A DNA stretch of 64,000 nucleotides from Gimesia sp. (GTDB lineage: Bacteria > Planctomycetota > Planctomycetia > Planctomycetales > Planctomycetaceae): the NCBI GenBank assembly GCA_002706765.1, contig PAJV01000013.1, positions 310,001-374,000 on the forward strand, written 5' to 3'. Below the pieces are notes generated by a model. The model did no database searches and was not told where the DNA came from. It worked only from the letters and a program-made list of their open reading frames with translations. Shown piece after piece: positions 3,709 to 55,608 of the stretch. How positions within the stretch are numbered: position 1 is the first letter of the stretch; every line of letters begins with the position of its first letter. Made by a program: the position numbers and the translations under genes.

Positions 3709-3795
3709 CGAGACTGTGACCAGTTTTACTGTCGCATCTCCAGAATCGTTAGGGTCGATAAAAATAGATTGAGAGACGCCAGGGTTTAATGTGTT
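3709..3795 (-). repeat. Dispersed intergenic repeat, copy R1
   Basis: Read on the minus strand, this stretch aligns without gaps to R2 at 3915-4002, with roughly four in five positions identical by eye. Shared blocks include AACCCTGGCGTCTC and ACAGTAAAACTGG. It lies 30 bp after the stop of the first giant protein. R1 and R2 form an inverted pair, so the gap between the two giant genes could fold into one long stem. Confidence 0.7.
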
Positions 3796-3914
3796 GCGCT
3801 CTCGTGAGAAGACAGGGAAAATACGTTTGTATCCTCTCTGATTTATGATAGTATACGATCTACTCGACACAAAATATTTAAGTGTCATTCAACCCAATTT
3901 AGATTTCTAGAACG

Positions 3915-4002
3915 CATCACATTTAACCCTGGCGTCTCCCGAGCTATTATGCTCGGTCCAAATGGTCTTGGAGACGCTACAGTAAAACTGGACACAGTCT
4001 AG
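3915..4002 (+). repeat. Dispersed intergenic repeat, copy R2 (best-preserved)
   Basis: The outer arms GCGTCTC and GAGACGC are complementary. Inside them lies a perfect 6-bp hairpin, CCGAGC-TATTAT-GCTCGG. A third short pairing follows at CAGT-AAA-ACTG. Copies or part copies recur near 3750, 10800, 45540, 46490 and 55280. One frame reads as a peptide (NPGVSRAIMLGPNGLGDATV), and R1 gives a related peptide, so an origin as a coding fragment is possible. No insertion-sequence gene is nearby. Confidence 0.7.
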
Positions 4003-4099
4003 AACCCACTCACTAAACTCCACTCATTCCAGTCAGTTGTGACGACACAACTGCCAGTCGGAACAGGGTCCCAGTAAGACAACCGGATCACTCTCAATC

Positions 4100-7000
4100 A
4101 TGTTAGTACAACAGTGGCTCACCTCGTTGCAGAACCAGCTCCGTTCCCGATTTGCCCGCTCTCCCCGTGGCCGTCGTCAACAGAATCGCAGGCTGAAAAC
4201 CCCGTCCGCACAGGCACTGGTTTCCCGCAATGTCATTGAGACGTTGGAAGACCGCACGCTGCTCACCGCTTTCACGGTGGTGAATACGGATGATTCCGGT
4301 GAGGGCAGTCTTCGTGCCGCCATCGAAGCCGCCAATGCGAACGCCGGTGCGGATACGATTTCGTTTGATGCAGCGCTGTCAGAGCAAACGATTGTATTGA
4401 ACGATGAGTTATTGATTTCCGATGACTTAACGATTACCGGTCTGGGAGCGAATCAGCTCACACTGGATGGCAACAACAACAGTCGGATTTTTAATATCGA
4501 TGATGATTCCGATGCATCAACAATCTTAGTTGAGATCAGCGGTCTGACGTTAACAAACGGGAATTCCAATACCGTTGATACTGAATTGGCAGACAATGGT
4601 GGCGCCATTTTCAGCACCGAAAATCTGCTTGTTGAGAATTGTGTCTTTATCGGCAATACTGCCGGATCGGGTGGGGCGATCTATGATGATGCCAGTTCTT
4701 TAACAGTGCGAGGCAGTCAGTTTATCGGGAATACGGCAGAAGAAAGTGATGGAGGCGCTATCTATCACAGTGAAACGTTCCCTTACCCGGAAGACGGTGA
4801 ACGGTTATTGATCGAAAACTCTCAGTTTGCAGGCAATCATGCCCGGTTCTCAGGGGGAGCGGTTCTGCTGCGCGATGGAATCAGTATCGTCACTGGCAGT
4901 ACCTTCACTGAAAACACGGCAGAATTTCCCGGTGGTGCCATCGCAAATATCTTCGGCGACCTGACCGTGAATGACAGCAGTTTTATCGAGAATCATACTG
5001 ATTTCAGCGGTGGGGCGATCGATAACAACGGTACGCTGTTCGTTTCCGGTTCGACTTTTGACAGGAATACTGCGGATGTCAATGGCGGTGGAATCTACAG
5101 CCAGGGAGCGGAGAGTGTCACCATTTATAACAGTACATTCTCCGGAAACAGCAGCGTGTCCAACGGAGGTGGAATTTTTGCACTCGGCAGCAAGCCCGTT
5201 TCTATTATCAACAGCACGATTGTTGGTAATGTGGCTGCCGGAAGTGGGATCAGCAACGGAGGCGGAATCTATCTGTTTAGCACCGACCCTACCTTGATTT
5301 TGAATACCATCATCGCAGGTAATCAAGCCGACTCAGGTCAGCAGATTGCCGGCGATTTCACGGGCACTGCCAACATTATCCAGGAGAGTATCGCTGGTCT
5401 GCTGGACCCGGAGTTGAAAGACAACGGCGGTCCCACCAAAACGCACGCGCTGTTGTCAGACAGTGCCGCGATCAACGCCGGAGATAATATTGCTGCGACC
5501 AATGCAGGACTGACAACAGATCAGAGGGGAACCGGTTTTTCCAGAATCGTTTCCGACATCATTGACATTGGTGCTTTCGAATCGTCCGTCGTGGAACCAG
5601 TCGATCTGGTCGTCAGTACCACCTCCGATGTAGTCGATGGAAATTATTCACCCGGCCTACTGTCGCTTCGTGAAGCCATTCAACTGGCGAATTCCACTTC
5701 CGGCGCGGATACGATTTCGTTCGATGCCTCGCTGGCCGGGCAGACGATTGTGCTGACCAGTGAATTGCTGATTTCGGATCACCTGACCATCACCGGCCTG
5801 GGGGTCGATCAGCTGACAATCAGCGGTGACAATGACAGCCGGATTTTCAATATATTTGATGGTCAAGTTGATACTTTGATCGATGTGGAAATCAGTGGTC
5901 TCACACTGACGAAAGGATCTTCCACGCAGGGCGGAGCAATTTATAACTACGAAAACATCGTGCTGACAGACACACTCTTTACGGAAAATAAAGCCAGCAG
6001 TGAAGGGGCAGCAATTTTTTCCGGCCAGGGTAGTGTGTCGATGTCGGAGAGTAGACTGTCTGCAAACATCGCTGATCGCGGGGCAGGAATCTTTGCGATC
6101 AACAGCATTCTGACACTGGATACATCCACATTCTCCGGGAATACCGTGACGAGAGACGGATCCGCCATTTATAACATTTTCTACACCCCATCCCTGGAAC
6201 TGAATCCTTCGACAATTACAGGGTGCACCTTTGTAGATAACACAGCAGCCGGCAATGGTGGAGGAATTTATAATTCCGGAGGCATCATCATCGTGAGTGA
6301 CAGTACGTTTTCTGAACAAAAAGCAGTCCTGGGAGGGGGTATCTATTCGAAGACTAATGGATATACGGGAAACATCTCAGTCATCAACAGCACGTTTTCA
6401 AACAATACCGAGGTCGAATCCGGAGGAGGAATTTATAGTGATGGAGTCGGTCTGTCAGTGGAAGATTCTTTCTTCACAGGCAACGTAGTATTCGGAGAGA
6501 ACACAAATGGTCTGGGTGGAGGCATTTATATTACAGGTGGCTCTCTCACTGTAACCGGTACAGAGTTTTCTGATAATGTGGCCTCCAGAGGCGGTGGAGG
6601 GATCTATTCGGGGGGCAACGAGTTTCTGACCATTTCAGCTTCAACTTTCAATAGAAATCAATCCCGCTCAGGTGGCGGAATTTTTAACAATAACACGACG
6701 TTGAGCATTCTTGACTCTCGCTTTACGGAAAATCAGGCGTTAGTGACTCCTGGAAAGGAATATCTGTCGGCCGTTGGTGGTGCTGTATTTAACTCTTATG
6801 CTGTGGCTACAGCAGCGGGGGAAATGGATACGCTCATTGCCAATACGGAGTTTACTGGTAATTATGCCGATAATGCAGGGGCTGCCATACAACAATCATT
6901 TGGTTTTATCACCATCAACAACAGCTTGATTACTGAAAATCTGGTCGGCACAAGTGGAAGCGGCATTCATAACTCATTTGGCCAGATGACAGTGCATCAA

Positions 7001-8863: not shown

Positions 8864-8990
8864 ATCAGATCTTCTTTGAAAGGTGTTGCCAGTTTTGGGG
8901 AATGATTCGCTTCCCGGTTGCGCCTGGCTTAGAATCGGGGTTTGAATCAAATCCGAAGTTCGATCACCGTCCGCGTTCAGGAGGCTGAAC

Positions 8991-9311: not shown

Positions 9312-9383
9312 GGCAAGCACCACCTGTTTCACTTGCCAAACTCGTGGCCAGATATATTGAAGAGTGGGATTTATTGTATGCTG

Positions 9384-9965
9384 TTATTCCCATTTTTCCT
9401 CTACACGATCAGCCACAATTTTCAATTCCTCAGCTACTTCGAGCTTTTCAGACCAGTATCGAAGATATTCTTGATCTATTTCAGATCCTTGAACCAATAG
9501 AATACTTGCACAGTCACGTAAATGCTTGTCAGAACCACCTCCCTGGAAGAATATCAGTTTCTTCAGGATGACATTTTCAGGTGAAGCAAACAGGGCGTTA
9601 AAAAATCCTTGACTTGAGATGCGTCGTCCCTGACTGATATCCAGCCGACCAAACTCTGTATCTATTGTTAAAATGAGATCAGCTTTAAATCCAGAAGGAA
9701 GATGTATGATATTAAACTGTTTCCTTGCTGCAATCGCCTCGCGGGCAGCATCGGGAGAGACATGATAATCTGGCGGAGAAAACTGATGACAAAGCAGCTC
9801 GATCTTGCTTTCAGGTAAATCAACGAGTATGTCGACATCATTAGTAAAACGAGGTTCGCCATAGATAATACTGGCGATGGAACCGACGATCCTGTAGGGA
9901 ACAGATTCTCTTTCCAGAAAATCGACCACTGACTGCATCAGTTTATAAGGTTTGAACTCATTCAT
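9384..9965 (-). CDS. Nucleotidyltransferase-fold protein (DUF6036/MNT-like)
   Basis: This 193-residue protein carries the minimal nucleotidyltransferase signature: GS at 28-29 followed by D-V-D at 43-45 (TNDVDILVDL). Such domains transfer nucleotides to proteins or RNA and often occur as antitoxin or modifying partners in toxin-antitoxin-like pairs. The gene overlaps the end of the small upstream gene by 8 bp, so the two are translationally coupled. The unit sits between a sulfatase pseudogene and an initiator tRNA, which suggests an acquired cassette. A catalytic role is likely from the intact GS...DxD motif, but the target cannot be named from sequence. Confidence 0.75.
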   Translation of the reverse strand: MNEFKPYKLMQSVVDFLERESVPYRIVGSIASIIYGEPRFTNDVDILVDLPESKIELLCHQFSPPDYHVSPDAAREAIAARKQFNIIHLPSGFKADLILTIDTEFGRLDISQGRRISSQGFFNALFASPENVILKKLIFFQGGGSDKHLRDCASILLVQGSEIDQEYLRYWSEKLEVAEELKIVADRVEEKWE

Positions 9966-10475: not shown

Positions 10476-10480
10476 GAAAG

Positions 10481-10554
<74 letters not shown>

Positions 10555-10865
10555 CTATGGGTCCATACATGGACTGATTAAGAGCAGTTTCAGATACAAA
10601 TAACGCCTGTGACAGGCACTATTTAGATGATTAAAAGCCCTAAATACAGTAAGCGAATATCGTTACCGTATGGGGGCATTATAGACAGGTCCTCCGCTGG
10701 CGTCGAGTAACTTTGTCTAAATTCCCAGAATTCGATGCGAAGATTGTCTGATCAGCCGTCAAGCTTCCACTAATTCGTATCATCCTTAACCAAAGCGGCT
10801 CTCGTGCTGTTATACACGCTCCAAATACACTTTGAGACGCTCTGGTCAGCCTGAATTTCGGCGGC
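10555..10865. other. Intergenic region with short inverted repeats and repeat R3
   Basis: This 311-bp gap holds the upstream region of the tRNA and the 3' flank of the sulfatase gene. Two perfect short inverted repeats lie close to the tRNA 5' end: GTCCAT-AC-ATGGAC at 10561-10574 and GCCTGT-G-ACAGGC at 10605-10617. They may be operators or processing signals. Repeat R3 occupies 10786-10845. No gene is seen. Confidence 0.5.
10786..10845 (+). repeat. Dispersed intergenic repeat, copy R3
   Basis: It starts TTAACC, keeps the right arm GAGACGC, and shares the 13-mer GCTGTTATACACG with copy R4 at 45523. It lies about 20 bp beyond the stop of the minus-strand sulfatase gene. Relative to that gene it is in the same orientation as R1, R5 and R6 are to theirs. 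Confidence 0.6.
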
Positions 10866-12341
10866 TTACTCGTATTCCCACTTCAAAACCCAGGGATCAT
10901 TGGTTTTTTCCTGCCAGGCTTTCAGCTTCTCCTGCATTGTAGTCAGGGTCTCCTGGTGTTCCGGCTCGAATGCCAGGTTCTTCGCTTCCCAGGGGTCGGC
11001 TTTAATATCGTACAGCTCGTGCCGGGGTCGGTGCAGGTAGGAATAGACGGTCCGCTGTCCGTACATCTTATCACCTCGTTTCAACACGCCCTGCCAGGTG
11101 GGTGACCGATATAAATCGGAGGCGAACGGGTAGGGGAGTTCGTGAGCGATGTTGAAGATGTACTTAAAGTTGCCGCTCAGAATTACCCGCATCGGGTAAT
11201 ACATGGTGATCTCGTGGAACGTGTGTGAGGCGTAACTTTCATCGAACTCGGGAGCATGTTCTTTCCCCAGGATCTCCAGGAACGAGCGTCCGTGGAACGT
11301 GTAAGGCACTGGCTTGCCTTTGCCTTCCACGCGCTTGCCGTTGTTTTCGACCGTTCGCAGTTTGGGAACTTTCTTAGGCGTGACATCGCAGTAGTCGAGA
11401 ATCGTGGGTGTCAGGTCGGCCCAGGTGACGAGGGCATCGGTGACGATTCCCTGGTTCTTGACGGTCGGATCGCGGACAATTAAAGGCAGGTTCATGCCCG
11501 GCTGATACAGGTTCGTTTTGGCTCCGGGGAACGGGGGGCCGTTATCGCTGAGGAACATGACCAGCGTGTCTTCCCAGTGACCGGTTTCTTTGAGTGTGTT
11601 GATCAGCGAAACGACGCCCTGGTCGAGACGCGAAATCGCCTGGTAGTATTCCGCCAGCTCTTCCTTGACTTCCTGATGATCGGGCAGCCAGGGCGGAACC
11701 TGGATCTGTTCGGGCTTGTATTTCACAGGCGTGACGCCGGGGTAGTGGTCGGGGTCAGCATTGAAGTTGGAATAACCGTCGGGGCCGCCACCACGATGCG
11801 GGTCGCTGCTGCAGTAGTACAGAAAGAAAGGGCTGTCGTCGTCTGCGGTGATGAACTCTCTGGCGTTGGCCGCCATCACTGCGGAGTTGCGGTTCCCCTG
11901 GATTCCTTTGTTACGGTACTCCTGAAACTGGTAAACGTATTCGGGAGCGACATGATACTTGCCGATCGAACAGGTGCGGTAGCCTCCTTCTTCCAGAATA
12001 ATGGGGAGTGACTTTACGGTCGCGTAGGTGCTGAAGTGGTTGTAACTGTGGGCGTGGCCGTAATGTCCGGTGGCATGATTATACAGGCCGGTGAGGATGA
12101 CCGAACGACTGGCCGAACAGCTGGCGGTCGTGCAGTGGGCGCGGGAAAAGCGTGTTCCCGATTCTGCCAGCATGTCGATGCCCGGCGTTTTGATGACTTT
12201 GTTTCCGTAGCAGCCCGCCTGAAAGCCCTGGTCATCCACGACTATGACAATGACGTTTTTCTGCTTCGCCGCAGCGGAGAGAGGTTCGACGGAAACGCAC
12301 AACAGCAACAGGCTGAGGATTCCAAACAGACATCGATTCAT
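10866..12341 (-). CDS. Secreted sulfatase (heparan N-sulfatase-like)
   Basis: The 491-residue protein begins with a cleavable signal peptide (about 1-25, ending LSAAA). The N-terminal metal site VIVVDDQG is at 32-39. The formylglycine motif C-S-A-S-R at 75-79 is the C-x-A-x-R variant of the sulfatase C-x-P-x-R signature. The C-terminus has the usual [16 protein letters not shown] segment. The arrangement resembles the N-sulfoglucosamine sulfohydrolase branch, so sulfated polysaccharide is the likely substrate, acting outside the cytoplasmic membrane after cysteine activation by an FGE/anSME enzyme not in this window. It is divergent from a DUF1080 gene, a common pairing in planctomycete glycan genes. 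Substrate assignment is tentative. Confidence 0.88.
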
Positions 12342-20039: not shown

Positions 20040-20445
20040 ACGTTTAACTACAGCGGGGAGTCAGAGAAAGTGGCACGACGATCAAAGCCGACTCACGTCG
20101 GTCTGATCCCAAAAGTAATTTTCATCCTATCATAGCGATCCGCGATCTACTCTGCTTCTCTCGAGAAAAGCAGTCAGGCTCCCCAAAGTATTTGGTGTAC
20201 AACTTTAAATCATTGCCCAGCTTGACTGACTGGTACAGGTTTTCAGCACCGGAATGGGCCGAGGGATGTGTGACGGGGTCGATTTGGCGAGATGGGTTGT
20301 CCTGGTTGAGGTTTCCGGTAATCCGATTATGCGGAATATTCCGAATATGCTGAAAATTCGCTTTGGGATGAGTTGCTCTGCTGCCGATGAGTTGAGAGAG
20401 CGTATAGCCTTTATATCAATGGTCCCCTCTGACCAGGGAAATTCG
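20040..20445. other. Divergent regulatory region between adaptor and TolC-like genes
   Basis: This 406-bp region contains an interrupted inverted repeat CTGCTT...AAGCAG with inner TCTC/GAGA at 20152-20173 and a perfect 12-bp palindrome CGGAATATTCCG at 20332-20343. Both could be regulator sites shared by the divergent genes. In-frame starts for the TolC-like gene exist as far up as 20254, but the lipoprotein signal argues for 20446. Confidence 0.45.
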
Positions 20446-22998
20446 ATGAACTGTTTCTTAGCCCGGATGATACTGCTGTTTGCCACAGTTGTGCTGCTGG
20501 GCCCGGGGTGCAGCCGCTTCCTGAGCAATTCATTCCAGGAAGAGTTCGTTGAAAGCGATGAGACCTACCAGCGTGCGCTGACTCAGATCGAGTATCCCAA
20601 TGTGGAAGACATCGATGAAGGTGATACGATTGGCACGCAGATGCCAGCGACGGTAGCCAGTACAGCCAATCCGGAGTACTGGGATCTGTCACTGGAAGAA
20701 GCAGTGCGGATGGCGTTACAGAGTTCCAAGGTTCTGGGTGATGTGGGCGGCGTGGCGTTGAATACTCCGGCTGCTGTTCACACCAAATACGATGCCGCAA
20801 TTACGGAAGCGGACCCCCGATATGGTGTTCCCGGTGCATTGAGTGCCTATGATGCGACCCTGTCTGCCAGTACCTTCTTCGAGAAAAATGATAAAGCATT
20901 AAACAACGTCTTCTTCGGCGGTGGAACGCGACTGTTGCGTCAGGATGCGATGGTTGTCCAGGCACAGTTAACCAAACGCGCCATGACCGGAACCGAATTT
21001 ACTCTGCGCGATTACATCGACTACGATGCCAACAATTCGCCGGGTAATCAGTTTCCCCACGCCTATCAGAACAATATCGAAATGGAATTCCGTCATCCGC
21101 TGATGCGGGGCGGCGGAGTGGATTTCAACCAGATTGCGGGCCCCAGCAATACGCCGGGCGTGATCAATGGTGTGATCATTGCCCGCATTAATACGGATAT
21201 CAGTCTCGGCGAATTTGAAATCTCCGTGCGTGATATGGTAAGTGATGTAGAGAATGCCTACTGGGATCTGTACTTCGGCTACCGTGATCTGGATGCCAAA
21301 ATCATGGCCCGTGATTCGGCCCTGGAAACCTGGCGTCGGATACATGCATTGTATGTGAATGGTCGCCGTGGTGGTGAAGCAGAAAAAGAAGCCCAGGCCC
21401 GTGAACAGTATTTCCGGTATCAGGCAGAAGTCGAAAACGCATTAAGCGGTCGCCTGCTGAATGGAACCCATACCAACAACGGCAGCCAGGGTGGTACCTT
21501 CCAGAGTAATCATGGCGTCTATGTGGCCGAGCGTCGTTTACGCATGCTGATGGGTATTCCCATTAACGATGGCCGTCTCATTCGTCCGGCAGATGAACCT
21601 TCGCTGGCCCGAGTCGAATTTGACTGGGAAGAAACACTGATCGAATCGCTCGAGCGTCGACCGGAAATCCGCCGTCAGCGCTGGCAGATCAAAAAACGTG
21701 AACTCGAACTGCAAGCCAACAAGAACTTCCTGAAACCGGAACTGGACCTGATTGGCCGCTATCGTTGGCGCGGGTTCGGACGAAACTTCCTGGCCGAAGG
21801 TTCTGACACGGGTGAATTTGACGGTGCCTTGAATTCTCTGTTCGACGGTAATCTGCAGGAATGGCAGATGGGGATCGAGCTGTCTGTCCCCCTGGGGAAA
21901 CGTCAGGCGCATGCCGCGATGCGACATGCCGAGTTGATGCTGGCCCGGGATCGCGCGATTCTGCATGAACAGGAACGAGCCATCGTACAAAGTTTAAGTA
22001 ATGCCATCTCTGATGTGGATCGTGCTTACGCGGTGTTGCAGACTACGTTTAACCGACGTCATGCGGCCCGCCAGGAAGTGGCAGCCGTCGAAGCCGCCTA
22101 CGATTCGGATAATGCCACACTGGACCTGCTGCTGGAAGCACAACGCCGCCAGGCAGAAGCGGATGGCAGTTATTACCGGTCCCTGGTGGAATACTCGCTG
22201 GCGATCAAGAACGTGCAGTTCGAAAAAGGGTCTCTGCTGGCCTACAACAATATCTATCTTGCTGAAGGGGGCTGGCCCGAAAAAGCCTACATGGATGCCT
22301 CGGAACGCGAACGTCTGCGAGGACGTGTCCGGAAAATTGCGGACGCTCCGGAATACACGGGCGCGCTGTCCCAGGGGGCCTATCCTCAATTGCTGACTCC
22401 AGGTGAAATGCCCGTTGAACCGCTGCAGCCCACACCGGCACCCGCAGAACCGACTCCGGAACCAGTAACAGAAAGATTAGTGCCTCCCCCTGTGCCCGGC
22501 GTGACGCAGAAGGCAGCCGGGAATGCCGATTTCATTCAGTCCATCGACTTTGATGAGTCTCCCGATGTAGAAAATTCCATCCGAAACCTGGAGGGAACCA
22601 GTAACCAGAGTGAACCCGAAGCGTATTTTGCACCTCGATCCATGGTTCCTCCCGGACCGGAATCGGGCTACCGGCCCGACGCCAGTGGAGCCGGATTCAA
22701 TGCTCTGCCAGTGACAGGACCGCAGGAGGCAGCCGCCACTCTGCCCGCTCAGAACCTGTCTGCGGGAAGTGCCACGTTGAATGTTGTGCCAGATTCGACT
22801 CCCACCCTGAGATCTGCGATACAGAACCAGACACTGAAGTTCCCCCTCAAGGAGAATTCCGGCAGTCAGGATCCTTTTAAAGACTATCGGAACGCAGGAC
22901 CACGCTGGGAACCAGTGCCCATTCCCGAGATGAAACAGCGGAATTTAAGGGACTTTTCGGGTGAAGTGAAACGATTTCCCTCGAAAGAGGCGAACTAG
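20446..22998 (+). CDS. TolC-family outer-membrane efflux lipoprotein
   Basis: From the ATG at 20446 the product is 850 residues. A lipoprotein signal (ARMILLFATVVLLGPGC) places Cys at about residue 25. The central 550 residues carry two TolC-type repeats rich in long helices, with typical phrases such as VENAYWDLYFGYRDLDAK and RRPEIRRQRWQIKKRELELQ. The C-terminal 200 residues are Pro-rich and low-complexity, longer than usual for the family. It would form the trimeric outer-membrane channel of a tripartite export system with the divergent HlyD-like adaptor. AGGGAA upstream of the ATG serves as a ribosome site. The substrate is unknown. Confidence 0.85.
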   Translation: MNCFLARMILLFATVVLLGPGCSRFLSNSFQEEFVESDETYQRALTQIEYPNVEDIDEGDTIGTQMPATVASTANPEYWDLSLEEAVRMALQSSKVLGDVGGVALNTPAAVHTKYDAAITEADPRYGVPGALSAYDATLSASTFFEKNDKALNNVFFGGGTRLLRQDAMVVQAQLTKRAMTGTEFTLRDYIDYDANNSPGNQFPHAYQNNIEMEFRHPLMRGGGVDFNQIAGPSNTPGVINGVIIARINTDISLGEFEISVRDMVSDVENAYWDLYFGYRDLDAKIMARDSALETWRRIHALYVNGRRGGEAEKEAQAREQYFRYQAEVENALSGRLLNGTHTNNGSQGGTFQSNHGVYVAERRLRMLMGIPINDGRLIRPADEPSLARVEFDWEETLIESLERRPEIRRQRWQIKKRELELQANKNFLKPELDLIGRYRWRGFGRNFLAEGSDTGEFDGALNSLFDGNLQEWQMGIELSVPLGKRQAHAAMRHAELMLARDRAILHEQERAIVQSLSNAISDVDRAYAVLQTTFNRRHAARQEVAAVEAAYDSDNATLDLLLEAQRRQAEADGSYYRSLVEYSLAIKNVQFEKGSLLAYNNIYLAEGGWPEKAYMDASERERLRGRVRKIADAPEYTGALSQGAYPQLLTPGEMPVEPLQPTPAPAEPTPEPVTERLVPPPVPGVTQKAAGNADFIQSIDFDESPDVENSIRNLEGTSNQSEPEAYFAPRSMVPPGPESGYRPDASGAGFNALPVTGPQEAAATLPAQNLSAGSATLNVVPDSTPTLRSAIQNQTLKFPLKENSGSQDPFKDYRNAGPRWEPVPIPEMKQRNLRDFSGEVKRFPSKEAN

Positions 22999-23293
22999 AC
23001 GGTCTCCCAATTTGCTAAAGCGTCACCCGAACGGTCTGAGTCAGGTATAATAGGTGCTGAGGGCGTTTTCTAAGCTGTGAACCTCTCTAACTGTCCAGTT
23101 AAGTGCGTCATATTTTCGGGGTTTGATTCCAACCTGTTCACCCTGGTAAACCGGGAAATCTGCCTCGAGACTGAGATTTTCACTAAAAATACTGTATCAG
23201 TGTAACTTGCCTCTTTCCCGGTATTGATATAACTTAAGGTGGAACAGTATAGTTAAGTCAGTTTTCGATCTGGATACGAGCTGGTGGTCAAAG

Positions 23294-26229: not shown

Positions 26230-26918
26230 GATTACTCTCCATGGATGATAAAAAATAAAAAATCAAAATCAGAGAAGAGGCAGTGATACAAATAAAATTC
26301 AGCATGAGTGTCTGCTTTAAATAAATCGAAGTGAAAAAAAACGGGACATCAAAAATCCGCGTAGCGGGTTCAAAGCGAAGCCCGCTGTGATTTTATATCA
26401 AAATATCCTGATGTACAATATTTTCAGGAAGGAGCCAGTTTTTCTGCAACGTCTTCAGGGCTGTCTGGGCCGAGTGTCACAGACTGAGAGTCGATGCGGA
26501 AATGGAATACGCTCTGATGAAAGTTGACAAACACTCAGATGTATGTAGGTCGGGGAGCAAAATTTCTTCGACAGATCCCACTGGGGATGCTGAATGCCTC
26601 TGCGTATCGGGATGCCGGTGTCCACTTTCAGGCAGGTTGCCTGGCGGGTTGAGTGTTTCAGTGACGCGATCTGCTTTCCCCATAAATGAGAATTTCCAAA
26701 CGGAGACCTCCCGACTCCAAGAAACTTGATCTTGCGCGAGGGGGAATGGATTGCTTACTTTTGGGCTTACATCTATTCTTGGAGTTTAGATGGGGGTTCT
26801 TCTCTACGTAATCAAGTGAAAATTCCGCTCTGACCATCGGATGGCACATCAGTCAATCAAGGCAGCATCTGTCTGTTGAGGTGTTTTTTCCTCGAAAGGT
26901 CTTATCAGGTAAAGCAAA
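26230..26918. other. Long intergenic region before the respiratory operon
   Basis: This 689-bp region lies between the divergent DUF1559 and act genes. It is AT-rich near 26230-26420. A hairpin AGCGGG-N12-CCCGCT lies at 26363-26386 with TTTTAT four bases downstream. A 75-codon open frame at 26502-26729 has no ribosome site or family resemblance and is probably not a gene. A possible promoter for the operon is listed at 26751-26779. Confidence 0.5.
26751..26779 (+). promoter_or_regulatory. Candidate sigma-70-type promoter of the act-cox operon
   Basis: TTGCTT at 26751-26756 is separated by 17 bases from TATTCT at 26774-26779. It lies 140 bp upstream of the first act gene. The match is partial and was found by eye. 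Confidence 0.3.
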
Positions 26919-43515: not shown

Positions 43516-43647
43516 TAGAAATGCATTTATTTTAGAAATAATTCGAAAACAGTTCATAAATCAGAGCCCGCAGCGAATGGACAGATCTGAGACACAGATT
43601 CGATCCCCCCGCTGCCCGGGCATATTAGATTTGACAGGTTGTCGGTC

Positions 43648-45510
43648 ATGGCCAAAAAAATTGAAAAAGCAAAACTGAAAAAAGTTCCGCAGGATCCGGT
43701 CGAGAGCAGCACTGCCGAAAAGGAGCAGGGCAAAAGTCGCCACAATGAAATGCGCGATACTATCGAATCGATTATCATTGCGCTGGTCTTTGCATTTGTG
43801 TTTCGCGCCTACTCAGCCGAAGCGTTTGTGATCCCCACAGGTTCGATGGCTCCCACTCTGTATGGGCGTCATAAAGAACTGCATTGCGCCGAGTGTGGTG
43901 TGAAGTATGCTGTAGGAGCCAGTGATGAGCTGGTCGAAAAATCAGAGTACTATCTTCCGGACAACAAGGTCACCGGTGCGTTCTGCCCGAACTGTCGCTA
44001 CTACACGAACCTGCAGAATGCGATGCCCTTTACCGGGGACCGTATTATCGTCAATAAATTTCCCTTCGATTACGGAGACCCCGGTCGCTGGGATGTGATT
44101 GTGTTCAAGTATCCCGAAGCGTCACAGACGAACTATATCAAACGACTCGTCGGCCTGCCCGGTGAAGAAATTCAGATTTCCCGCGGCGATGTTTACGCCC
44201 GTAAAAATGAAAAAGAGCCGTTTCAGATTCTCCGCAAAGACAATCTGGACAAGCAGCTGACGGTTCAGCAACTCGTGTATGACGATGATTATCCCCCTCG
44301 CGAAATCCTGGAGTATGGCTGGCCTGAGCGCTGGTCTCCCATGCAGCAGGTCAAGCCGGTTGAAACGCGGTTTGAAGATCTCAAGCAGTCTGCCTGGGAA
44401 CTGGACCGCGTTGCGCGAGCCTATCAGTATAAAGGGACGACAGCCAAAGCCGACAAGCTGGAGTGGCTCCGCTATCAGCATATCGTACCCCGACAGTCAG
44501 AATGGGCCTTACTGCAGGAAAATCCCGAACTGTTCACCCAGACGATGCTCTCTTCGCCTCCGCAGTCCCGTCTGATCAGCGATTACACCGCGTACAATAA
44601 CTATTCGGGTGGGTCTTCTTCCGGCGCATTCACTTACGATGCGGCATTCTGGGTCGGCGATCTGACGCTCAGTTTTGATGTCGAGATTCAGTCGGAAGCA
44701 GGTGAGTTGCTGGTGGAGCTGATGCGCGGAGATCGACATTTCCGGGTTCGTTTTGACGTCAAAACGGGACAGGCGAAACTGTATTTTGTAGAAGATTTTC
44801 CCAATCCCGAGCCAGTCGAAACCGAACTGACCACGGTGGAGACAGACCTCAAAGGGCAGGGGGGCTACTCCGTCATGTTTGCGAATGTCGATCAGAGGCT
44901 CTGTCTGTGGATTAACGGTTCAGTCGTTGATCTGGGAGCAGCGTCAGAATACCAGCCTCCGGTTTCACCAGCACCCCGCGAGGGCGATCTGGCGCCGGCA
45001 GGGGTTGCAGGTGTGGGGATTGATTTTACCGTTTCGCATCTCATGCTGCAGCGTGACATTTATTATCGCGCGGATGAGTATTATCAGAATCAGGAATATT
45101 CGGGCGATCGCAGACACTTATGGGAACTGCTCTGGGATCCCGCCGCCTGGAGCCGTCAGTACGAAGATCACCGCCAGCAGGTCCGGTTTGATCAAATGTC
45201 CGACGATGAGTTTTTTGTGCTGGGCGATAACTCCGCCCGCAGTGCCGACAGTCGTCTCTGGGGGAATGCACGCCAGGCAGAACGTCGGCACGCGGTCCCC
45301 CGTTCTGCGCTGGTCGGAAAGGCCTTCATGATTTACTGGCCACATGGGATTCCGTTTATGAATGATGGTCGGGGCTATTCACCCAGTGTCGGCCCGCTCA
45401 AGCGGTTTTTCTACCACCAGACGCGTCCGGGAGTGTATCCCGATGACCCGTATGCCAAGCTGTCAATCCCCTTTTATCCTAACGTTTCCAGGATGAAACG
45501 CATCCGCTGA
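43648..45510 (+). CDS. Signal peptidase I homologue 2 with large insertion
   Basis: The 620-residue protein has the same layout as the gene before it: helix at about 38-55, Ser66 (PTGSMAP), Cys pairs C80-AE-C83 and C113-PN-C116, Lys165 (YIKRLVGLP), a beta-rich insertion (about 328-470), and FVLGDNSARSADSR near 522. The N-terminal tail is Lys-rich. Both copies appear catalytically complete, and the two arose by duplication. Possible roles are cleavage of different signal peptides or of large surface proteins. In-frame TTG at 43639 is an alternative start. Repeat R4 begins 12 bp after its stop. Confidence 0.9.
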   Translation: MAKKIEKAKLKKVPQDPVESSTAEKEQGKSRHNEMRDTIESIIIALVFAFVFRAYSAEAFVIPTGSMAPTLYGRHKELHCAECGVKYAVGASDELVEKSEYYLPDNKVTGAFCPNCRYYTNLQNAMPFTGDRIIVNKFPFDYGDPGRWDVIVFKYPEASQTNYIKRLVGLPGEEIQISRGDVYARKNEKEPFQILRKDNLDKQLTVQQLVYDDDYPPREILEYGWPERWSPMQQVKPVETRFEDLKQSAWELDRVARAYQYKGTTAKADKLEWLRYQHIVPRQSEWALLQENPELFTQTMLSSPPQSRLISDYTAYNNYSGGSSSGAFTYDAAFWVGDLTLSFDVEIQSEAGELLVELMRGDRHFRVRFDVKTGQAKLYFVEDFPNPEPVETELTTVETDLKGQGGYSVMFANVDQRLCLWINGSVVDLGAASEYQPPVSPAPREGDLAPAGVAGVGIDFTVSHLMLQRDIYYRADEYYQNQEYSGDRRHLWELLWDPAAWSRQYEDHRQQVRFDQMSDDEFFVLGDNSARSADSRLWGNARQAERRHAVPRSALVGKAFMIYWPHGIPFMNDGRGYSPSVGPLKRFFYHQTRPGVYPDDPYAKLSIPFYPNVSRMKRIR

Positions 45511-45522
45511 AGTGAGTTACAG

Positions 45523-45572
45523 TTAACCCTGGCGTCTCTCAAGCTGTTATACACGACTACAATCGCACTTTC
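45523..45572 (+). repeat. Dispersed intergenic repeat, copy R4 (left part)
   Basis: It begins TTAACCCTGGCGTCTCTC, as in R1 and R2. It then shares GCTGTTATACACG with R3. The right arm GAGACGC is lost. It lies directly after the second signal peptidase stop. Confidence 0.6.
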
Positions 45573-45672
45573 CCCATATGAGTGAAATCGATATTTAGCC
45601 GAATGGTATAATTTAGTAGAATCAGCTCTCGTGTGAGTTTTGATTGCGGTTTCGTCAAGGAGGACGAGTACG

Positions 45673-46455
45673 ATGGCATTGCTGGAATGTGTAGGTCTGG
45701 TCAAAGATTATCCCGGTAAACGGGCAGTGGACGGCGTCGACTTCTATGTGGAGCGCGGCGAAATCGTCGGGTTGCTCGGTCCAAACGGTGCCGGCAAAAC
45801 GACCACGTTCCGGATGTCCTGCGGGATGGTGGCCCCGACGAAAGGCCGCGTCTATCTAGAAGGCACAGACGTCACAAACTGGCCCATGTACAAAAGGGCC
45901 CGGCAAGGCATGGGCTACCTGCCTCAGGACGAAAGCGTATTTGTGAAACTTTCGATAGAGCAGAACATTTATGCGATTCTCGAATTTCTGGATGTCACCC
46001 GCAAACAGAGACATGAAACCGTCGACCGCTTGCTGGATCAGTTTGGTCTGACCGCGAAGCGTAAACAGATTGCTTCCACCCTGTCCGGCGGAGAACGAAG
46101 GCGGCTGGAAATCGCCCGCTGCCTGGCCAGTTCACCCGAACTGATCCTGCTGGATGAACCGTTTACCGGAATCGACCCGGTGACGATTCACGATATTCAG
46201 GATATCATTGCCGACCTGCGCGATGATGGCATTTCGATCCTGCTCACTGACCACCGGGAGCGGGAAACGTTAACGATTACCGACCGCAGCTATATCATCT
46301 CAGCCGGTCAGGTACTGGTCAGCGGAGATGCAGAAACCGTTCTCAGTGATGCTTCCGCACAGGCGCTCTACTTTGGAAAACGATTCGACAAAGGTTCGAT
46401 CATCGAAGGACGTGAAGCGTTTGGAACGCGTGGCATGGATCGAGATGCTGCGTGA
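45673..46455 (+). CDS. lptB: LPS export ABC transporter ATPase LptB
   Basis: The 260-residue ATPase has Walker A GPNGAGKTT (about 37-45), a Q-loop in YLPQDESVF (the LptB phrase), the signature LSGGERRR, Walker B LILLDEPFTGIDP, and the switch His in LLTDHRERET. LptB powers extraction of lipopolysaccharide from the inner membrane with LptFG, which are not in this window. An AAGGAGG ribosome site supports the ATG at 45673. It stands 160 bp after the signal peptidases and is convergent with the next gene. Confidence 0.92.
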   Translation: MALLECVGLVKDYPGKRAVDGVDFYVERGEIVGLLGPNGAGKTTTFRMSCGMVAPTKGRVYLEGTDVTNWPMYKRARQGMGYLPQDESVFVKLSIEQNIYAILEFLDVTRKQRHETVDRLLDQFGLTAKRKQIASTLSGGERRRLEIARCLASSPELILLDEPFTGIDPVTIHDIQDIIADLRDDGISILLTDHRERETLTITDRSYIISAGQVLVSGDAETVLSDASAQALYFGKRFDKGSIIEGREAFGTRGMDRDAA

Positions 46456-46461
46456 ATTTGA

Positions 46462-46520
46462 TGCTGTAGCATCTCCCGGGCCATTTGGAACCGGGTAGCA
46501 TAGCTTGAGAGGCGCCAGAG
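46462..46520 (-). repeat. Dispersed intergenic repeat, copy R5
   Basis: On the minus strand it reads CTCTGGCGCCTCTCAAGCTA, then TTCCAAATGG and GAGATGCTACAG, matching R2 almost throughout. It starts 7 bp after the lptB stop, in the gap between convergent genes. A perfect hairpin GATGCT-GT-AGCATC lies at its right edge. Confidence 0.65.
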
Positions 46521-46536
46521 TGATCTCTGAAACGCC

Positions 46537-47640
46537 CTACGGTTCGCTGCGGTAACGACCAGGCTGCCATCGCAATGCCGCCCGTCCAATACTCATGGAG
46601 TCCGTCAGGCGATCCATACAGATGCCTGCTGCAGGCAGCAGGATCAAGTCTCCCGGACTCACCGGAGCATGGTCGTTATTTTCAACGACTTCGTCCAGTC
46701 GCGCCAGGATCGTGGGAATCGTGGATGAAATCGAATTCCCGTAGTTCGGCAGATTGTTCAGGAAGTCGGCGGAGATGGGAATCTGTTTTGCCGCAGCAAT
46801 CATGGCTTTGAGCAGTTTGCCGCTGGGCTGATGCGGGGCAATCAGAATACGATTCGCCGTACCGGAAACTTCATTATAAGACTTCAGGCATGCTTCCAGC
46901 ATCAGGTCCACCCCGTTGAGGAATACGGATTCGCCATCCATATGCATCACGAGTTTGTGTTCCGGCTGTCCGCGGAAGTCGTACATGTCTCCCTGTTCGG
47001 TCCAGAACAGAGGCACATCCGGCTTACGGCGTTCTTCCGGAATGTATTCGGTTGATGTTTCCACATGCAGCAGTGAATGCCCGGGACCACGCCACAACGT
47101 AGTGCCCGTAGCGCCGGCAGAGACGATGCCGCAGAATGCCTTGTCTGAGGAATCGTGCCAGTGCTCGGGAGTTTCAACAGTCAGCAGCGGAATATGCACG
47201 CCCGCCGGCTGGTCTTCCAGCAGTTGGGAAGCCCGGTTCAGCAGTTCAACAAATCCGACGCAGCCGTAGTTTAAAGCGATAAATCGCTCGGCGGGGACTC
47301 CCAGTTTTTCACTGAGCTGATCGCATAGAAGGCGCGCTGACTGGTTGCGGGTATGCGAATGGCACAGCAGAATTGCCGGGCAATCTGCCCAGTCAAAGCC
47401 GACGGTCAGTTGCAGTTTTTCTGCAATCGCAGTCGCGATATCCAGTGGTGAAAGGTCTGGCTGCAACAGGCGTCGTGTTTCGATGCCCGTAGAGCGGCTG
47501 ATCGCTTTCACGCTGGAAAAACCGGCGCTGAAACCCTGGTGAGAGAGTGTATAGACACTTTCATTATCTAATAGTTCAAACAGATCTGTGTGATCTGCCA
47601 GATCTACGATTTCTGTCAGTGCAAATCCATTAGTCTGCAT
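46537..47640 (-). CDS. 3-oxoacyl-ACP synthase III-like (thiolase-fold) enzyme
   Basis: The product is 367 residues from the ATG at 47640; a TTG seven codons earlier is also in frame. It has the thiolase fold of FabH-like condensing enzymes. The nucleophile is Cys127 in LNYGCVGF, His270 is in IAPHQPSG, and Asn302 is in NYGNSISSTIP, giving a complete Cys-His-Asn triad. It would join an acyl starter to malonyl-ACP or a similar unit. The substrate is unclear because the N-terminus differs from housekeeping FabH. It stands alone with no fatty-acid or polyketide genes nearby, so a specialised role is possible. Confidence 0.82.
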   Translation of the reverse strand: MQTNGFALTEIVDLADHTDLFELLDNESVYTLSHQGFSAGFSSVKAISRSTGIETRRLLQPDLSPLDIATAIAEKLQLTVGFDWADCPAILLCHSHTRNQSARLLCDQLSEKLGVPAERFIALNYGCVGFVELLNRASQLLEDQPAGVHIPLLTVETPEHWHDSSDKAFCGIVSAGATGTTLWRGPGHSLLHVETSTEYIPEERRKPDVPLFWTEQGDMYDFRGQPEHKLVMHMDGESVFLNGVDLMLEACLKSYNEVSGTANRILIAPHQPSGKLLKAMIAAAKQIPISADFLNNLPNYGNSISSTIPTILARLDEVVENNDHAPVSPGDLILLPAAGICMDRLTDSMSIGRAALRWQPGRYRSEP

Positions 47641-50380: not shown

Positions 50381-50434
50381 TTTCCATGCCTCAATCAATC
50401 GCGAATCTGTGTCGCTGAGAAGGGGGGTACCGTC

Positions 50435-52224: not shown

Positions 52225-52279
52225 ACATCCCGAATTGAAACTGAAACGATTCAGCGACTAAGCGAATAGAAGAAAAACA

Positions 52280-53119: not shown

Positions 53120-53215
53120 TTACGGGGGAGGGCCAGTGTGAAAGACATATTTTTTGAAATGGTCTTGCAGTAAAATAATAGAACTGATAAACAACGGTTT
53201 CTCTCATTTCTCAAT

Positions 53216-53707
53216 ATGAATTCCCCTTTAAAACCTGAGACCAATTCGACAGGCAGTTCATTCCTGTCAGCATTTCGTACTTTGCATCCGGGCGTTTCCG
53301 TTGGATGGAAAATACGATTCCTGCTGATTGGCTGGAGTCTGTTTCTGATCGCGGGCTTTGGAGTGGCCATTCAAACGATACCGGATTCACGTGGATTCGG
53401 TACCCATCAAAAACTCGGTTTTGCACCTTGTGTTATAAAATCTCGATTTTCCATTCCCTGTCCCAGTTGTGGGATGACAACTTCCTTTTCACATTTTGTT
53501 CGAGGCCAGATCCGTCAGTCTGCCGAGGCTAATACCTCTGGTTTGATACTGGCAGTTGTCTGCCTGGTGATGATTCCCTGGTCCTGGATCAGTGTGTATT
53601 GTCGCAGGCTCTGGCTGGTCTCCCAACCTGAAACCTGTCTGCTCTGGTTGATCTGTGGTCTGGTATCGATCACGATCGTCGAGTGGGTATTACGATTGAA
53701 CTTTTAA
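53216..53707 (+). CDS. DUF2752 membrane protein
   Basis: The 163-residue protein has three membrane helices (about 40-58, 108-128 and 142-158) and the DUF2752 signature CPSCGMTTSFSHFVRGQ near residue 83. The Cys-x2-Cys-Gly loop may bind metal or form a disulfide. Function is unknown. It is on the same strand as dapF, 96 bp downstream. A structured palindromic stretch with ACAGG/CCTGT arms follows its stop at about 53713-53747. Confidence 0.85.
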   Translation: MNSPLKPETNSTGSSFLSAFRTLHPGVSVGWKIRFLLIGWSLFLIAGFGVAIQTIPDSRGFGTHQKLGFAPCVIKSRFSIPCPSCGMTTSFSHFVRGQIRQSAEANTSGLILAVVCLVMIPWSWISVYCRRLWLVSQPETCLLWLICGLVSITIVEWVLRLNF

Positions 53708-53804
53708 TAGACAGGCTCACGGGATTCCCGGTGGGCCGCCCTGTGCCTTCCTGAATATCCAATCTCGAAAACTCTCTGCGGTTCTAGCCAAGGATGGCTG
53801 AAAG

Positions 53805-54497
53805 ATGCGAAATAGAATGACGAACGACCATCAAAAGTGGTTTCACCAGCGGTACTGTGCCGTCGTCTTACTGCTGCTGGTTTCAATAAGTCTCAGTGGC
53901 TGCTCGCTGTTTGTAATGGCGGGTAAGATGTTTTTTGGTGACCCGCTGATGACCTGTGAATTTACCAGGCAGACCAAAATCGATTTGATTGAAGATCAGA
54001 AAAAAGTCCTGGTGGTCTGCTCGACTCCGGAATCGATTCGCTCCGATTATCCGTCGCTGAATTATGATCTGCTGGAGCAGGTTACGTATCGACTGCGTCG
54101 CGAAAATATCAAAGTCATGGACACCGGTGAGGTCGCGACCTGGCTGGACGATAACGGCGGGGTCTGGAACGATGTGGATGAACTCGCGGAGAATTTTGAA
54201 GTCGACTATATCATTCATGTCGACATTGATGAATTTGACTACCGTGAACCAAACAGCCCAAATCTGCTCAGAGGCAAAGCCTACGGCCATATCTCTGCTT
54301 ATGAAGTCAATTCGATTGACGGCATGAAACGGGCGCTGGAAATTTTTAACGTGGAATACACGTCAGAATACCCCAGTCATCTGCCGGTTTCGATTGAACA
54401 GGAATCAGAAGCCGTGTTCAAGAAAAAATATCTGGATCGGATTGCCGATCAGATAGGTCGCTTCTTCTATAATTATCACGCGGGCGACCCCATCTGA
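53805..54497 (+). CDS. Lipoprotein, first of a tandem pair
   Basis: The 230-residue protein has a type II signal peptide (YCAVVLLLLVSISLSGC) with Cys at about 29. The mature part alternates helices and strands and includes VDYIIHVDIDEFDYRE and NLLRGKAYGHI. These match the next protein (VTYVIHIELHKYSLYEE; DLYRGRAEGMV), so the pair are paralogues. No family name is recognised. The fold could be similar to outer-membrane lipoproteins with a GNA1162-like layout, but this is a guess. An ATG at 53817 is also in frame. Confidence 0.78.
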   Translation: MRNRMTNDHQKWFHQRYCAVVLLLLVSISLSGCSLFVMAGKMFFGDPLMTCEFTRQTKIDLIEDQKKVLVVCSTPESIRSDYPSLNYDLLEQVTYRLRRENIKVMDTGEVATWLDDNGGVWNDVDELAENFEVDYIIHVDIDEFDYREPNSPNLLRGKAYGHISAYEVNSIDGMKRALEIFNVEYTSEYPSHLPVSIEQESEAVFKKKYLDRIADQIGRFFYNYHAGDPI

Positions 54498-54559
54498 TCG
54501 CAGGATACCTGACAAAACGCAGACCAGAAAATTATTTCGGAGTTGTGAAGGATCACACG

Positions 54560-55255
54560 ATGACAATTTTATCGAATCAACAATCTGTAGTGAAACAGTT
54601 TTTCCAGACCGTCTCGAAGCTGGCGCTGGTCTGTGTACTCTGCACCACACTGACAGGTTGTAATTATTTCATTCTCATCGGATACCTGATTGGTGGTCCC
54701 CCTTCCATCGAGCCCGATTTCGATGCCCAGACTCAGAAGTCGATGACGGGTAAAGATGTGACGGTTGCCATCGTCTGTTATGCACCGCTGGAACTGCAGT
54801 ATAATTTCGATGGAATTCATAACGATCTGGCGAAGTACACCACGTTTCAATTACACAGTCATGGCGTCAAAGTGGTCAATCCGGACCGGATTCGTGCCTG
54901 GCTGGATGAGAACCCTGACTGGGACAAACCCGAAGAAATCGGTGAAGCCTTTGACGTGACGTATGTGATTCATATCGAACTGCATAAATACAGTCTGTAT
55001 GAAGAAAACAGCTCGGACCTCTATCGCGGTCGTGCGGAAGGCATGGTCACCGTCTACGAAATGGATGAGGCCGGCGAAGGCGAAAAATTGTACAGCAAGG
55101 AAATTACTTCGTTCTATCCGCTGCGGGCACCCCGGGCGACTTCCGAGACGACCTTCTCCAAGTTCAAGAAAGAATATCTCGGACGCCTGAGTGATGAGAT
55201 TGGCCGCCTGTTTTACGAATACTACAACGGCGACGATTTCACACACGCAATCTGA
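54560..55255 (+). CDS. Lipoprotein, second of a tandem pair
   Basis: The 231-residue protein is read from the ATG at 54560, with AAGGA seven bases upstream. The signal peptide ends in the lipobox TLTGC (Cys about 35). The mature part is paralogous to the preceding lipoprotein along its whole length, ending in LGRLSDEIGRLFYEYYNGD versus LDRIADQIGRFFYNYHAGD. The two are 62 bp apart and probably co-transcribed and co-localised. No function is known. A short terminator that is also the edge of repeat R6 starts right at its stop. Confidence 0.8.
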   Translation: MTILSNQQSVVKQFFQTVSKLALVCVLCTTLTGCNYFILIGYLIGGPPSIEPDFDAQTQKSMTGKDVTVAIVCYAPLELQYNFDGIHNDLAKYTTFQLHSHGVKVVNPDRIRAWLDENPDWDKPEEIGEAFDVTYVIHIELHKYSLYEENSSDLYRGRAEGMVTVYEMDEAGEGEKLYSKEITSFYPLRAPRATSETTFSKFKKEYLGRLSDEIGRLFYEYYNGDDFTHAI

Positions 55256-55275
55256 ACGGGACTGTGTCCCGTTTT
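55256..55275 (+). terminator. Terminator after tandem lipoproteins, within repeat R6
   Basis: ACGGGAC and GTCCCGT pair perfectly over three bases, followed by TTTTA. It begins at the base after the stop codon. The same bases are the right end of repeat R6, so here the repeat supplies the terminator. Confidence 0.65.
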
Positions 55276-55312
55276 ACTATAACGTCTCCAGGATCATTTG
55301 GGCCGAGTGCTT
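55256..55312 (-). repeat. Dispersed intergenic repeat, copy R6 (right part, with a distant left end)
   Basis: On the minus strand it reads CACTCGGCCCAAATGATCCTGGAGACGTTATAG, then AGTAAAACGGGACACAGTC, close to R2. The left-arm match GAGAGACGCTCAGG is found separately at 55426-55439, so the copy may have been split by about 100 bp of other DNA. Confidence 0.6.
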
Positions 55313-55608
55313 TGTCAAGCTGGAAATTGAGGGTTGGGGGTGTTGTTTACGTGCTCCGTTGTCGCACTCTCGTGATATCGATCAACCCAAAATTTAAAAA
55401 TGACACTCCACTAGTATCATCGATGGAGAGACGCTCAGGATAAGTGGGCTTCGCTCCAGAACCGGCTTCAGGTCGAGTCGATCAATCTCCACTCTTGCAA
55501 CTGGTTCCGCGAACCGTTAATTTTCAAAGCGTAGCGCAAGCACTCACGTTCTCTGGTGAGGTTTATGCCATGGGAAATCGTAGTTGAGTTTCAAGGTAGT
55601 GATACGAA
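55313..55608. other. Intergenic region after R6
   Basis: No gene is seen. It contains the left-end fragment of R6 at 55426-55439. AAGG just upstream of 55609 is the likely ribosome site for the next gene. Confidence 0.4.

What the first reader, a model, noticed from the sequence alone, without database searches (positions are those of the whole stretch)
3709..55439. Dispersed, structured intergenic repeat associated with gene 3' ends
Six copies or part copies are seen: 3709-3795 (-), 3915-4002 (+), 10786-10845 (+), 45523-45572 (+), 46462-46520 (-), and 55256-55312 with a left fragment at 55426-55439 (-). Shared features are TTAACCCTGGCGTCTC at the left, GAGACGCTACAG at the right, complementary GCGTCTC/GAGACGC arms, and an internal hairpin that changes sequence but often keeps pairing (perfect CCGAGC/GCTCGG in the second copy). 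Five copies sit right after a stop codon: R1, R3, R5 and R6 run inward from their right end and R4 is forward. R6 supplies a perfect terminator stem. Nothing of this shape is named in standard families I know. It could be a planctomycete counterpart of REP/ERIC-type elements, possibly a non-autonomous mobile element or a 3'-end processing element.
Basis: partly seen in the sequence, partly recalled or inferred. Interest (0 to 1): 0.75.

Follow-up and report, generated by a model that had tools for sequence, protein, structure and literature searches.

The report
IS630-type mini-transposon that restores stop codons
The repeats are copies of a 92-nucleotide mini-transposon without genes of its own, present at least 150 times in this planctomycete genome; because both its ends begin with a letter that completes a TAG stop codon, it can land in the stop codon of a gene without changing the protein, which helps to explain why copies seem to mark gene ends.

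Summary
The six pieces belong to one 96-nt unit (90-nt element plus TA dinucleotides and target letters; 32-nt arms around a 32-nt centre). The genome holds at least 150 copies. All 17 genomes of the genus match; one of 382 others in a class-wide draw has a related family. Best explained as a MITE of the IS630/Tc1-mariner superfamily: its left arm matches both ends of a 1,025-nt IS630 element in a sister genome at 25 of 27 positions, and filled/empty comparisons show insertion with TA duplication. The link to gene 3' ends is partly real: 23 of 142 eligible copies sit inside a TAA/TAG stop codon, rebuilt as TAG by the element's terminal G (7% expected); 9 of 35 copies examined in a sister genome do so. 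There is no orientation bias, and compensatory pairing in the internal hairpin is not supported, so an RNA-level function is not supported. No link to Y1 transposases was found, nor an Rfam match. The right arm's parent is unknown. New member of a known kind (closest in mechanism: pneumococcal RUP), with a stop-codon niche worth testing.

The parts
3709..3804 (-). R1, full copy of the element (flanking TA positions included, decayed)
   Evidence: CM E 3.9e-19, model 1-96 (a member of the model alignment); 30 nt after stop of ORF 1195-3678
3907..4002 (+). R2, full copy, CTAG at both ends
   Evidence: CM E 5.3e-24, model 1-96 (a member of the model alignment)
10770..10867 (+). R3, decayed copy; by eye its right end runs into the stop codon (TTA on + strand, 10866-10868) of the minus-strand gene 10866-12341
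   Evidence: CM 10770-10854, E 2.9e-7, end extended by eye; present in G014 and G008, absent in G010, G013, G016
22995..23090 (-). Additional copy not in the finding; its right end C-TAG-AC supplies the TAG stop (22996-22998) of ORF 20254-22998
   Evidence: CM E 6.2e-4; sequence; ORF list
26424..26517 (-). Additional decayed copy between divergent genes, not in the finding
   Evidence: CM E 3.9e-6; gene calls
45507..45611 (+). R4, left-half remnant just after stop of ORF 43639-45510
   Evidence: CM E 0.0033; 45 nt longer than G014, G008 and G006 here; alignment
46441..46540 (-). R5, decayed copy just after stop of ORF 45640-46455
   Evidence: CM E 1.6e-6; absent from the 8 sister genomes aligned
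55256..55305 (-). R6, right part of a copy split by another repeat
   Evidence: CM 55257-55353, E 3.1e-7; absent in the 5 sister genomes aligned
55306..55415 (+). Second repeat family ('B', 110 nt) inserted into R6
   Evidence: Listed copies at 88-98% identity in the genus (list cut); ends compared in 10 copies
55416..55455 (-). R6, left part of the split copy
   Evidence: GAGAGACGC arm after the B repeat; weak CM hit 55355-55459, E 0.17

Best explanation
A MITE of the IS630/Tc1-mariner superfamily. A 90-nt DNA with two imperfect terminal inverted repeats and no gene is cut and pasted in trans by an IS630-type DDE transposase into TA dinucleotides, preferably (TT)C-TA-A/G, duplicating the TA (net gain 92 nt). 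Because the element begins with G at both ends, insertion at the TA of a TAA or TAG stop codon rebuilds a TAG stop at the same place, so stop codons are sites inside genes where insertion costs nothing; together with selection against insertion elsewhere in genes this yields much of the 3'-end association. Shown: family, copy number, TA duplication, species-specific insertion, left-arm match to an IS630, stop-codon rebuilding. Inferred: mobilisation in trans by that IS630 lineage, absence of a host function, the reason for the stop-codon excess.
For: At least 150 copies; 17 of 17 genus genomes match. IS630 elements L203 (G001) and L202 (G016): inverted ends at 1001-2025, 21 of 26 matching; L203 has HTH_Tnp_IS630 and DDE_3 and both its ends are 25 of 27 identical to the MITE left arm; the repeat's HMM hits both ends of L203 and one end of L202 with model 1-28 (E 0.0012, 0.0016, 0.0087). 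Filled/empty pairs with TA duplication: G014 copy against window (net 92), G008 copy (shared with G006) against G014 (net 92), G013 copy against G016 (net 91 with small flank differences). R4, R5, R6 absent from the 6, 8 and 5 sister genomes aligned. Tandem copies share CTAG at 92-nt spacing. Stop codons: 23 of 142 against 7.2% expected, P 2e-4; 9 of 35 in G014, P 6e-4; copy L147:2001-2096 has TAG where 8 of 8 matched sister genes have TAA. ISY100, of the IS630 family, inserts at and duplicates TA, with transposase as the only protein needed (PMC2170065, abstract and passages); preference of an IS630-associated transposon for CTAG is the title of Tenzen and Ohtsubo 1991, seen only in that reference list.
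Against: The right arm matches the IS630 ends at only 17 of 27 positions, so a transposase that fits both arms has not been found. The window's own genome has five DDE_3 hits; the two whose loci were fetched (L208, L214) do not show these ends, the other three were not examined. Target preference is lopsided (C at one side 81%, G only 41% and A 47% at the other), unlike a simple palindromic CTAG target. Only 84 of 150 reconstructed sites still read TA, and left and right TA states are not associated (P 0.19). Conservation is uneven along the element, which pure decay would not give. At two sites some empty sisters do not read TA: G010 at the G014 site reads GA, and the three sisters of L156:2001 read TGA.
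Confidence: 0.9

Rival explanations
1. REP/REPIN-type element moved by a Y1 (RAYT) transposase.
For: Palindromic, mostly intergenic, over 100 copies; Y1_Tnp genes in 14 of 17 genus genomes.
Against: The element HMM finds no full copy in the 30 Y1 loci fetched (of 53 matches), only a right-arm piece in L201; TA is duplicated; the left arm matches an IS630 end. Low-copy genomes G001, G005, G009 and G012 all have Y1 while G004, with 53 matches to the repeat, has none, so copy number does not follow Y1.
Confidence: 0.03
2. A structured RNA or DNA 3'-end element (terminator or processing signal) kept by selection at gene ends.
For: Enrichment near stops even outside stop codons: 6 of 45 used CTAR sites within 20 nt against 14 of 562 unused, P 0.002. 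Whole-element folding slightly better than half-swapped copies (-21.8 against -21.2, sd 0.18, below all 20 swaps). Near the right end, G at column 83 goes with C at column 90 (7 of 34 against 2 of 84, P 0.002), and the G104 family has a paired change in the same small hairpin. Uneven conservation.
Against: No orientation preference (46 against 42 one-sided copies); 31 copies between divergent genes; the top 30 mutual-information column pairs show no pattern of a helix; internal hairpin no better than recombined halves (-4.79 against -4.67, sd 0.15); no Rfam match (for the window, for five loci); no terminator-like site at R4-R6 in the scan.
Confidence: 0.06
3. Transposase actively prefers stop codons or gene 3' ends (targeting, not only tolerance). 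This is compatible with the best explanation and concerns one step of it.
For: Stop-codon CTAR sites used 17 of 50 against 45 of 607 intergenic ones (odds ratio 6.4); young copies show the excess too (own best 50: 11; G014: 9 of 35).
Against: The 6.4 is inflated because stop codons keep their TA while other sites decay; the conservative ratio is 2.4, P 0.007. At least 6 of 23 are in DUF1559 genes, 5 of these ending GEF* or GEY*, a good TTC-TA-A target, so longer context may explain the rest. In the G104 family none of 10 copies overlaps a called stop exactly.
Confidence: 0.25
4. Small coding element that adds a C-terminal peptide (frame 0 of the consensus is open for 31 codons).
For: Frame 0 open in 95 of 118 copies of length 96.
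Against: Synonymous 519 and non-synonymous 1122 changes against 482 and 1154 expected, a slight shift only; 1 of 150 copies lies in a called gene.
Confidence: 0.02

Closest known systems
RUP of Streptococcus pneumoniae (107 bp, proposed to be moved by IS630-Spn1)
   Same: Short non-autonomous repeat with about 100 intergenic copies, ends like those of an IS630 element, TA target (PMC2229807 and PMC3049150, passages)
   Different: Other host; sequence not compared; here only one arm closely matches a known IS630; the passages read on RUP do not mention stop-codon rebuilding
BOX elements of S. pneumoniae
   Same: Repeat that often supplies the stop codon: 36 of 58 overlapping coding sequences (PMC3049150, passage)
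   Different: BOX ends were likened to ISSpn2 (same passages); here the stop is rebuilt exactly by the terminal G after a TA target
Correia/NEMIS and ERIC
   Same: MITEs with terminal repeats and TA at the termini (table in PMC2229807, passage)
   Different: No sequence comparison made here
IS630/ISY100 elements
   Same: TA duplication; terminal repeats begin TAGAGC at both ends in 32 and at one end in 4 of 44 relatives whose ends I could define (of 80 kept from 306)
   Different: Full elements of about 1 kb with transposase; the present element has none
REP/REPIN
   Same: Palindromic, intergenic, high copy number; REPs with GTAG or CGTC tags are reported from Planctomycetes too (PMC3733652, abstract and passages)
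   Different: Y1/RAYT association and tag motif; neither met here

Membership tests
MITE of the IS630/Tc1-mariner superfamily | Short, no transposase gene, many dispersed copies | tested here: met
   96-nt unit, at least 150 copies; no clear coding signal
MITE of the IS630/Tc1-mariner superfamily | Duplicated TA target | tested here: met
   Three filled/empty pairs with one TA against two; at a fourth site (L156:2001-2096) three sisters read TGA where TA is expected
MITE of the IS630/Tc1-mariner superfamily | Terminal repeat shared with an autonomous IS630 | tested here: met
   Left arm 25 of 27 to both ends of the L203 IS630
MITE of the IS630/Tc1-mariner superfamily | Both ends recognised by one known transposase | tested here: inconclusive
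   Right arm 17 of 27 only; no IS with the right-arm sequence at both ends among the 20 DDE_3 loci or the 44 relatives with definable ends
MITE of the IS630/Tc1-mariner superfamily | Moves when the transposase is supplied | not testable with these tools
   Needs an assay
REP/REPIN | Linked Y1 (RAYT) transposase gene | tested here: not met
   30 of 53 Y1 matches fetched as loci, no full copy; one right-arm piece
REP/REPIN | GTAG or CGTC tag at one end | tested here: not met
   Ends CTAG or TTAG flanked by duplicated TA. Tag definition from PMC3733652 (abstract and passages)
RNA family of Rfam | Match to a curated covariance model | tested here: not met
   Window at gathering scores: only a tRNA; five loci at E up to 1: none
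Intrinsic terminator | GC stem plus T run, oriented with genes | tested here: not met
   No orientation bias; none listed at R4-R6, though R6 has such a stem by eye
RUP | Sequence homology to RUP | not tested
   No RUP sequence was compared

The most novel reading that the evidence does not exclude
A transposable element adapted to stop codons as safe harbours: both ends (TA-GA) and a TTC-TA-A/G target taste match the 3' ends of abundant host genes (DUF1559 family among them), so that it spreads through the genus by replacing stop codons without changing proteins. The related family in a second genus (G104) showed no exact stop-codon copy in the 10 seen, so the adaptation, if real, may be limited to this genus.
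Probability: 0.25. Interest if true: 0.6.

Novelty: new member of a known kind. Interest (0 to 1): 0.4.

Why it matters
It gives a concrete identity to an apparently gene-associated repeat: a mobile element, not a demonstrated 3'-end signal. It shows how a TA-targeting transposon can sit in stop codons at no cost to the protein, a simple route by which 'regulatory-looking' repeats can arise; on mutation of the TAG such copies could become C-terminal extensions (inference). The searches that combined MITE or repeat terms with planctomycete, IS630, stop-codon or target-site terms listed no paper whose title or abstract start describes such an element in planctomycetes; four of these listings were cut (15 of 104, 20 of 38, 12 of 95, 12 of 387), and most subscription papers are not held.

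Tried and rejected
RNA function: Rfam, RNAalifold on 23 copies (11 pairs, 1 with changes on both sides, covariation term +0.28), mutual information over the 118 of 150 copies of length 96 and recombination of halves gave no support for compensatory change in the internal hairpin. Against my reading: whole-element folding is slightly better than half-swapped copies, columns 83/90 are associated, and the G104 family reads ACTAGACGTAGT where the genus reads ACTGGACACAGT, a change that keeps pairing; a small right-end hairpin stays open. Peptide reading: no clear codon signal. Y1/RAYT: not linked. Terminator: see rivals.

Rows dropped: 7 of 30 first loci were left out of the model alignment (L014, L015, L022, L024, L026 as chance matches, L002 and L007 as partial or divergent). 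The 23 kept include R1 and R2. In the reconstruction of empty sites 8 of 150 copies fell in called genes and were left out of the stop test, against 1 of 150 in the first context count. Gene calls come from my own codon-usage caller, which misses some genes: it did not call ORF 9384-9965 of the window, whose counterpart in G014 is interrupted by a copy, so in-gene insertions are undercounted. Site L156:14859 (stop-codon copy) aligned too poorly outside the closest sisters to read its empty site; the script skipped the empty site of L147:2001, and it was read from the left flank only. The 35 G014 copies come from 20 regions that I chose from the best-scoring listed copies and from clusters; 3 are a tandem array and 2 a tandem pair. 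The DUF1559 test was run on 6 of 23 stop-codon genes, chosen for their ends.
Full report
What is there. Reading the copies found elsewhere in the genome showed the full unit: 96 nt from CTAG to CTAG, made of a 32-nt left arm (CTAGAGCGCATCACATTTAACCATAGCGTCTC), a 32-nt centre and a 32-nt right arm that is an imperfect inverted repeat of the left one. A covariance model from 23 copies, R1 and R2 among them (7 of the first 30 loci dropped), matched 150 of 150 scored candidates in the genome, so 150 is a lower bound. A right-end 31-mer with up to 3 mismatches occurs 88 times against 0 for the reversed control. In the window the model finds the six copies and adds two, at 22995-23090 and 26424-26517. 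R6 is a single copy split by a second repeat of 110 nt.

Distribution. In 59 genomes the model matched 17 of 17 of the genus and 0 of 42 others. In a class-wide draw of 397 genomes it matched 15 genus members and one genome of another genus of the family, G104, where all 10 scored candidates match (stricter filters). The G104 copies are on average 94% identical to each other, also 96 nt long, and their consensus matches at 67 of 96 positions, including the central CCAAATGG. Four genus genomes gave only one match each; two of these share one site and the other two have their own; the other 13 gave 18 or more, with candidates capped at 71. By eye the copies form subfamilies by species.

How it moves. 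In sister genomes I found filled and empty versions of the same site. A G014 copy is missing from the window (net 92 nt) and from G010, which reads GA in place of TA; a G008 copy, shared with G006, is missing from G014 (net 92 nt); a G013 copy is missing from G016 (net 91 nt with small flank differences). In the three pairs G014/window, G008/G014 and G013/G016 the empty site has one TA and the filled site two. The G014 copy interrupts the counterpart of the window's ORF 9384-9965, so insertion in genes does occur. R4, R5 and R6 are absent from the 6, 8 and 5 sister genomes aligned, while R3 is shared with G014 and G008 and absent from three others. Tandem copies share their CTAG at a spacing of 92 nt. 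Searching the genus for DDE_3 transposases (9 of 17 genomes) and scanning the 20 fetched loci with the repeat's HMM gave L203 (G001) and L202 (G016). Each is an IS630 element of 1,025 nt from TA to TA; L203 carries HTH_Tnp_IS630 and DDE_3 domains in two overlapping frames. Both ends of L203 match the repeat's left arm at 25 of 27 positions and its right arm at 17 of 27. Of 80 wider relatives kept from 306, 44 had ends I could define, and 32 of these begin TAGAGC at both ends, 4 at one. Transposase alone suffices for TA insertion with duplication in ISY100, of the same family (PMC2170065, abstract and passages). The most likely mechanism is therefore mobilisation in trans by an IS630 transposase. 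That step is inferred, and the right arm's own parent is not known.

Why gene ends. Of 150 copies, 88 lie between tandem genes (46 with the 3' end on the element's left, 42 on its right), 31 between divergent and 24 between convergent genes, so there is no orientation rule. But a sharp peak exists: a neighbouring stop codon formed exactly by the element's end. After removing each copy in a script, 23 of 142 eligible insertions fall on the TA of a TAA or TAG stop codon, against 3.9% of eligible TA sites, or 7.2% when weighted for the neighbouring bases (P 2e-4). Among CTAA, CTAG and TTAG sites, 17 of 50 at stop codons are used against 45 of 607 elsewhere (odds ratio 6.4). This is inflated by decay of the other sites, and a conservative ratio is 2.4 (P 0.007). 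A separate set of 35 copies in G014 has 9 such cases and none in a called gene (P 6e-4). The reason is simple: the element begins with G at both ends, so TA plus G makes TAG. The copy at L147:2001-2096 shows it: 8 of 8 matched sister genes end in TAA, the own gene in TAG followed by the element (best BLAST matches in syntenic stretches, 69-74% identical, so paralogy within this gene family cannot be fully excluded). Six stop-codon genes chosen for their ends are all DUF1559 proteins, five ending GEF* or GEY*; such ends fit the preferred target, so part of the excess may be ordinary target taste. In the window the copy at 22995-23090 supplies the TAG of ORF 20254-22998. Outside stop codons there is a milder excess within 20 nt of stops (6 of 45 against 14 of 562, P 0.002) and no significant change near starts. 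In G104 none of the 10 copies overlaps a called stop exactly (the caller was trained on the other genus).

No sign of an RNA function in the internal hairpin. The consensus folds because it is a palindrome, but the copies do not keep the internal hairpin through compensatory change: recombining left and right halves between copies gives about the same energy (-4.67, sd 0.15, against -4.79), and the strongest column associations do not outline a helix. Weak signals the other way (whole-element folding; columns 83/90; a paired change in G104) concern the arms and the right end, where transposase binding or shared descent could produce them. Rfam has no match.

What it is called. It meets the tested defining features of an IS630/Tc1-mariner MITE, except that no transposase is known for both ends. 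RUP of pneumococcus is its closest analogue by mechanism, and BOX elements are a precedent for repeats that supply stop codons (36 of 58 overlapping coding sequences, PMC3049150, passage). I did not compare sequences with RUP, ERIC or Correia. The family was not met in the paper searches made; the kind is known.

Noticed in passing
window 55306-55415: Second dispersed repeat family (110 nt, AGTGCTTTGTC...CACTAG), many copies in the genus, several abutting copies of the first element at CTAG; probably another MITE, duplication not resolved.
   Followed up: partly
G104: L342-L351: A related but distinct 96-nt family, on average 94% identical within itself, in another genus of the family: it suggests an independent recent burst with the same centre CCAAATGG.
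   Followed up: partly
L147, L099, L109, L106, L071, L081: Stop codons of DUF1559 (SBP_bac_10) genes, five of six ending GEF* or GEY*, are repeated landing sites (at least 6 of the 23 stop-codon copies).
   Followed up: partly
L226:2933-3028 (G014) against window 9384-9965 (-): A sister-genome copy interrupts the counterpart of the window's 193-aa ORF 9384-9965, which by eye looks like a nucleotidyltransferase (GEPRFTNDVDILVDLPESK) and is open in the window.
   Followed up: partly
L203:23-1003 (G001): The IS630 element lies at the end of another open reading frame that by eye looks like a different transposase, suggesting nested insertion.
   Followed up: no
L034, L042, L044, L046: Four genus genomes yield only one copy each although the other 13 have 18 or more, suggesting lost mobility or a late arrival; the L203-type IS630 is nevertheless present in one of them (G001).
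   Followed up: partly
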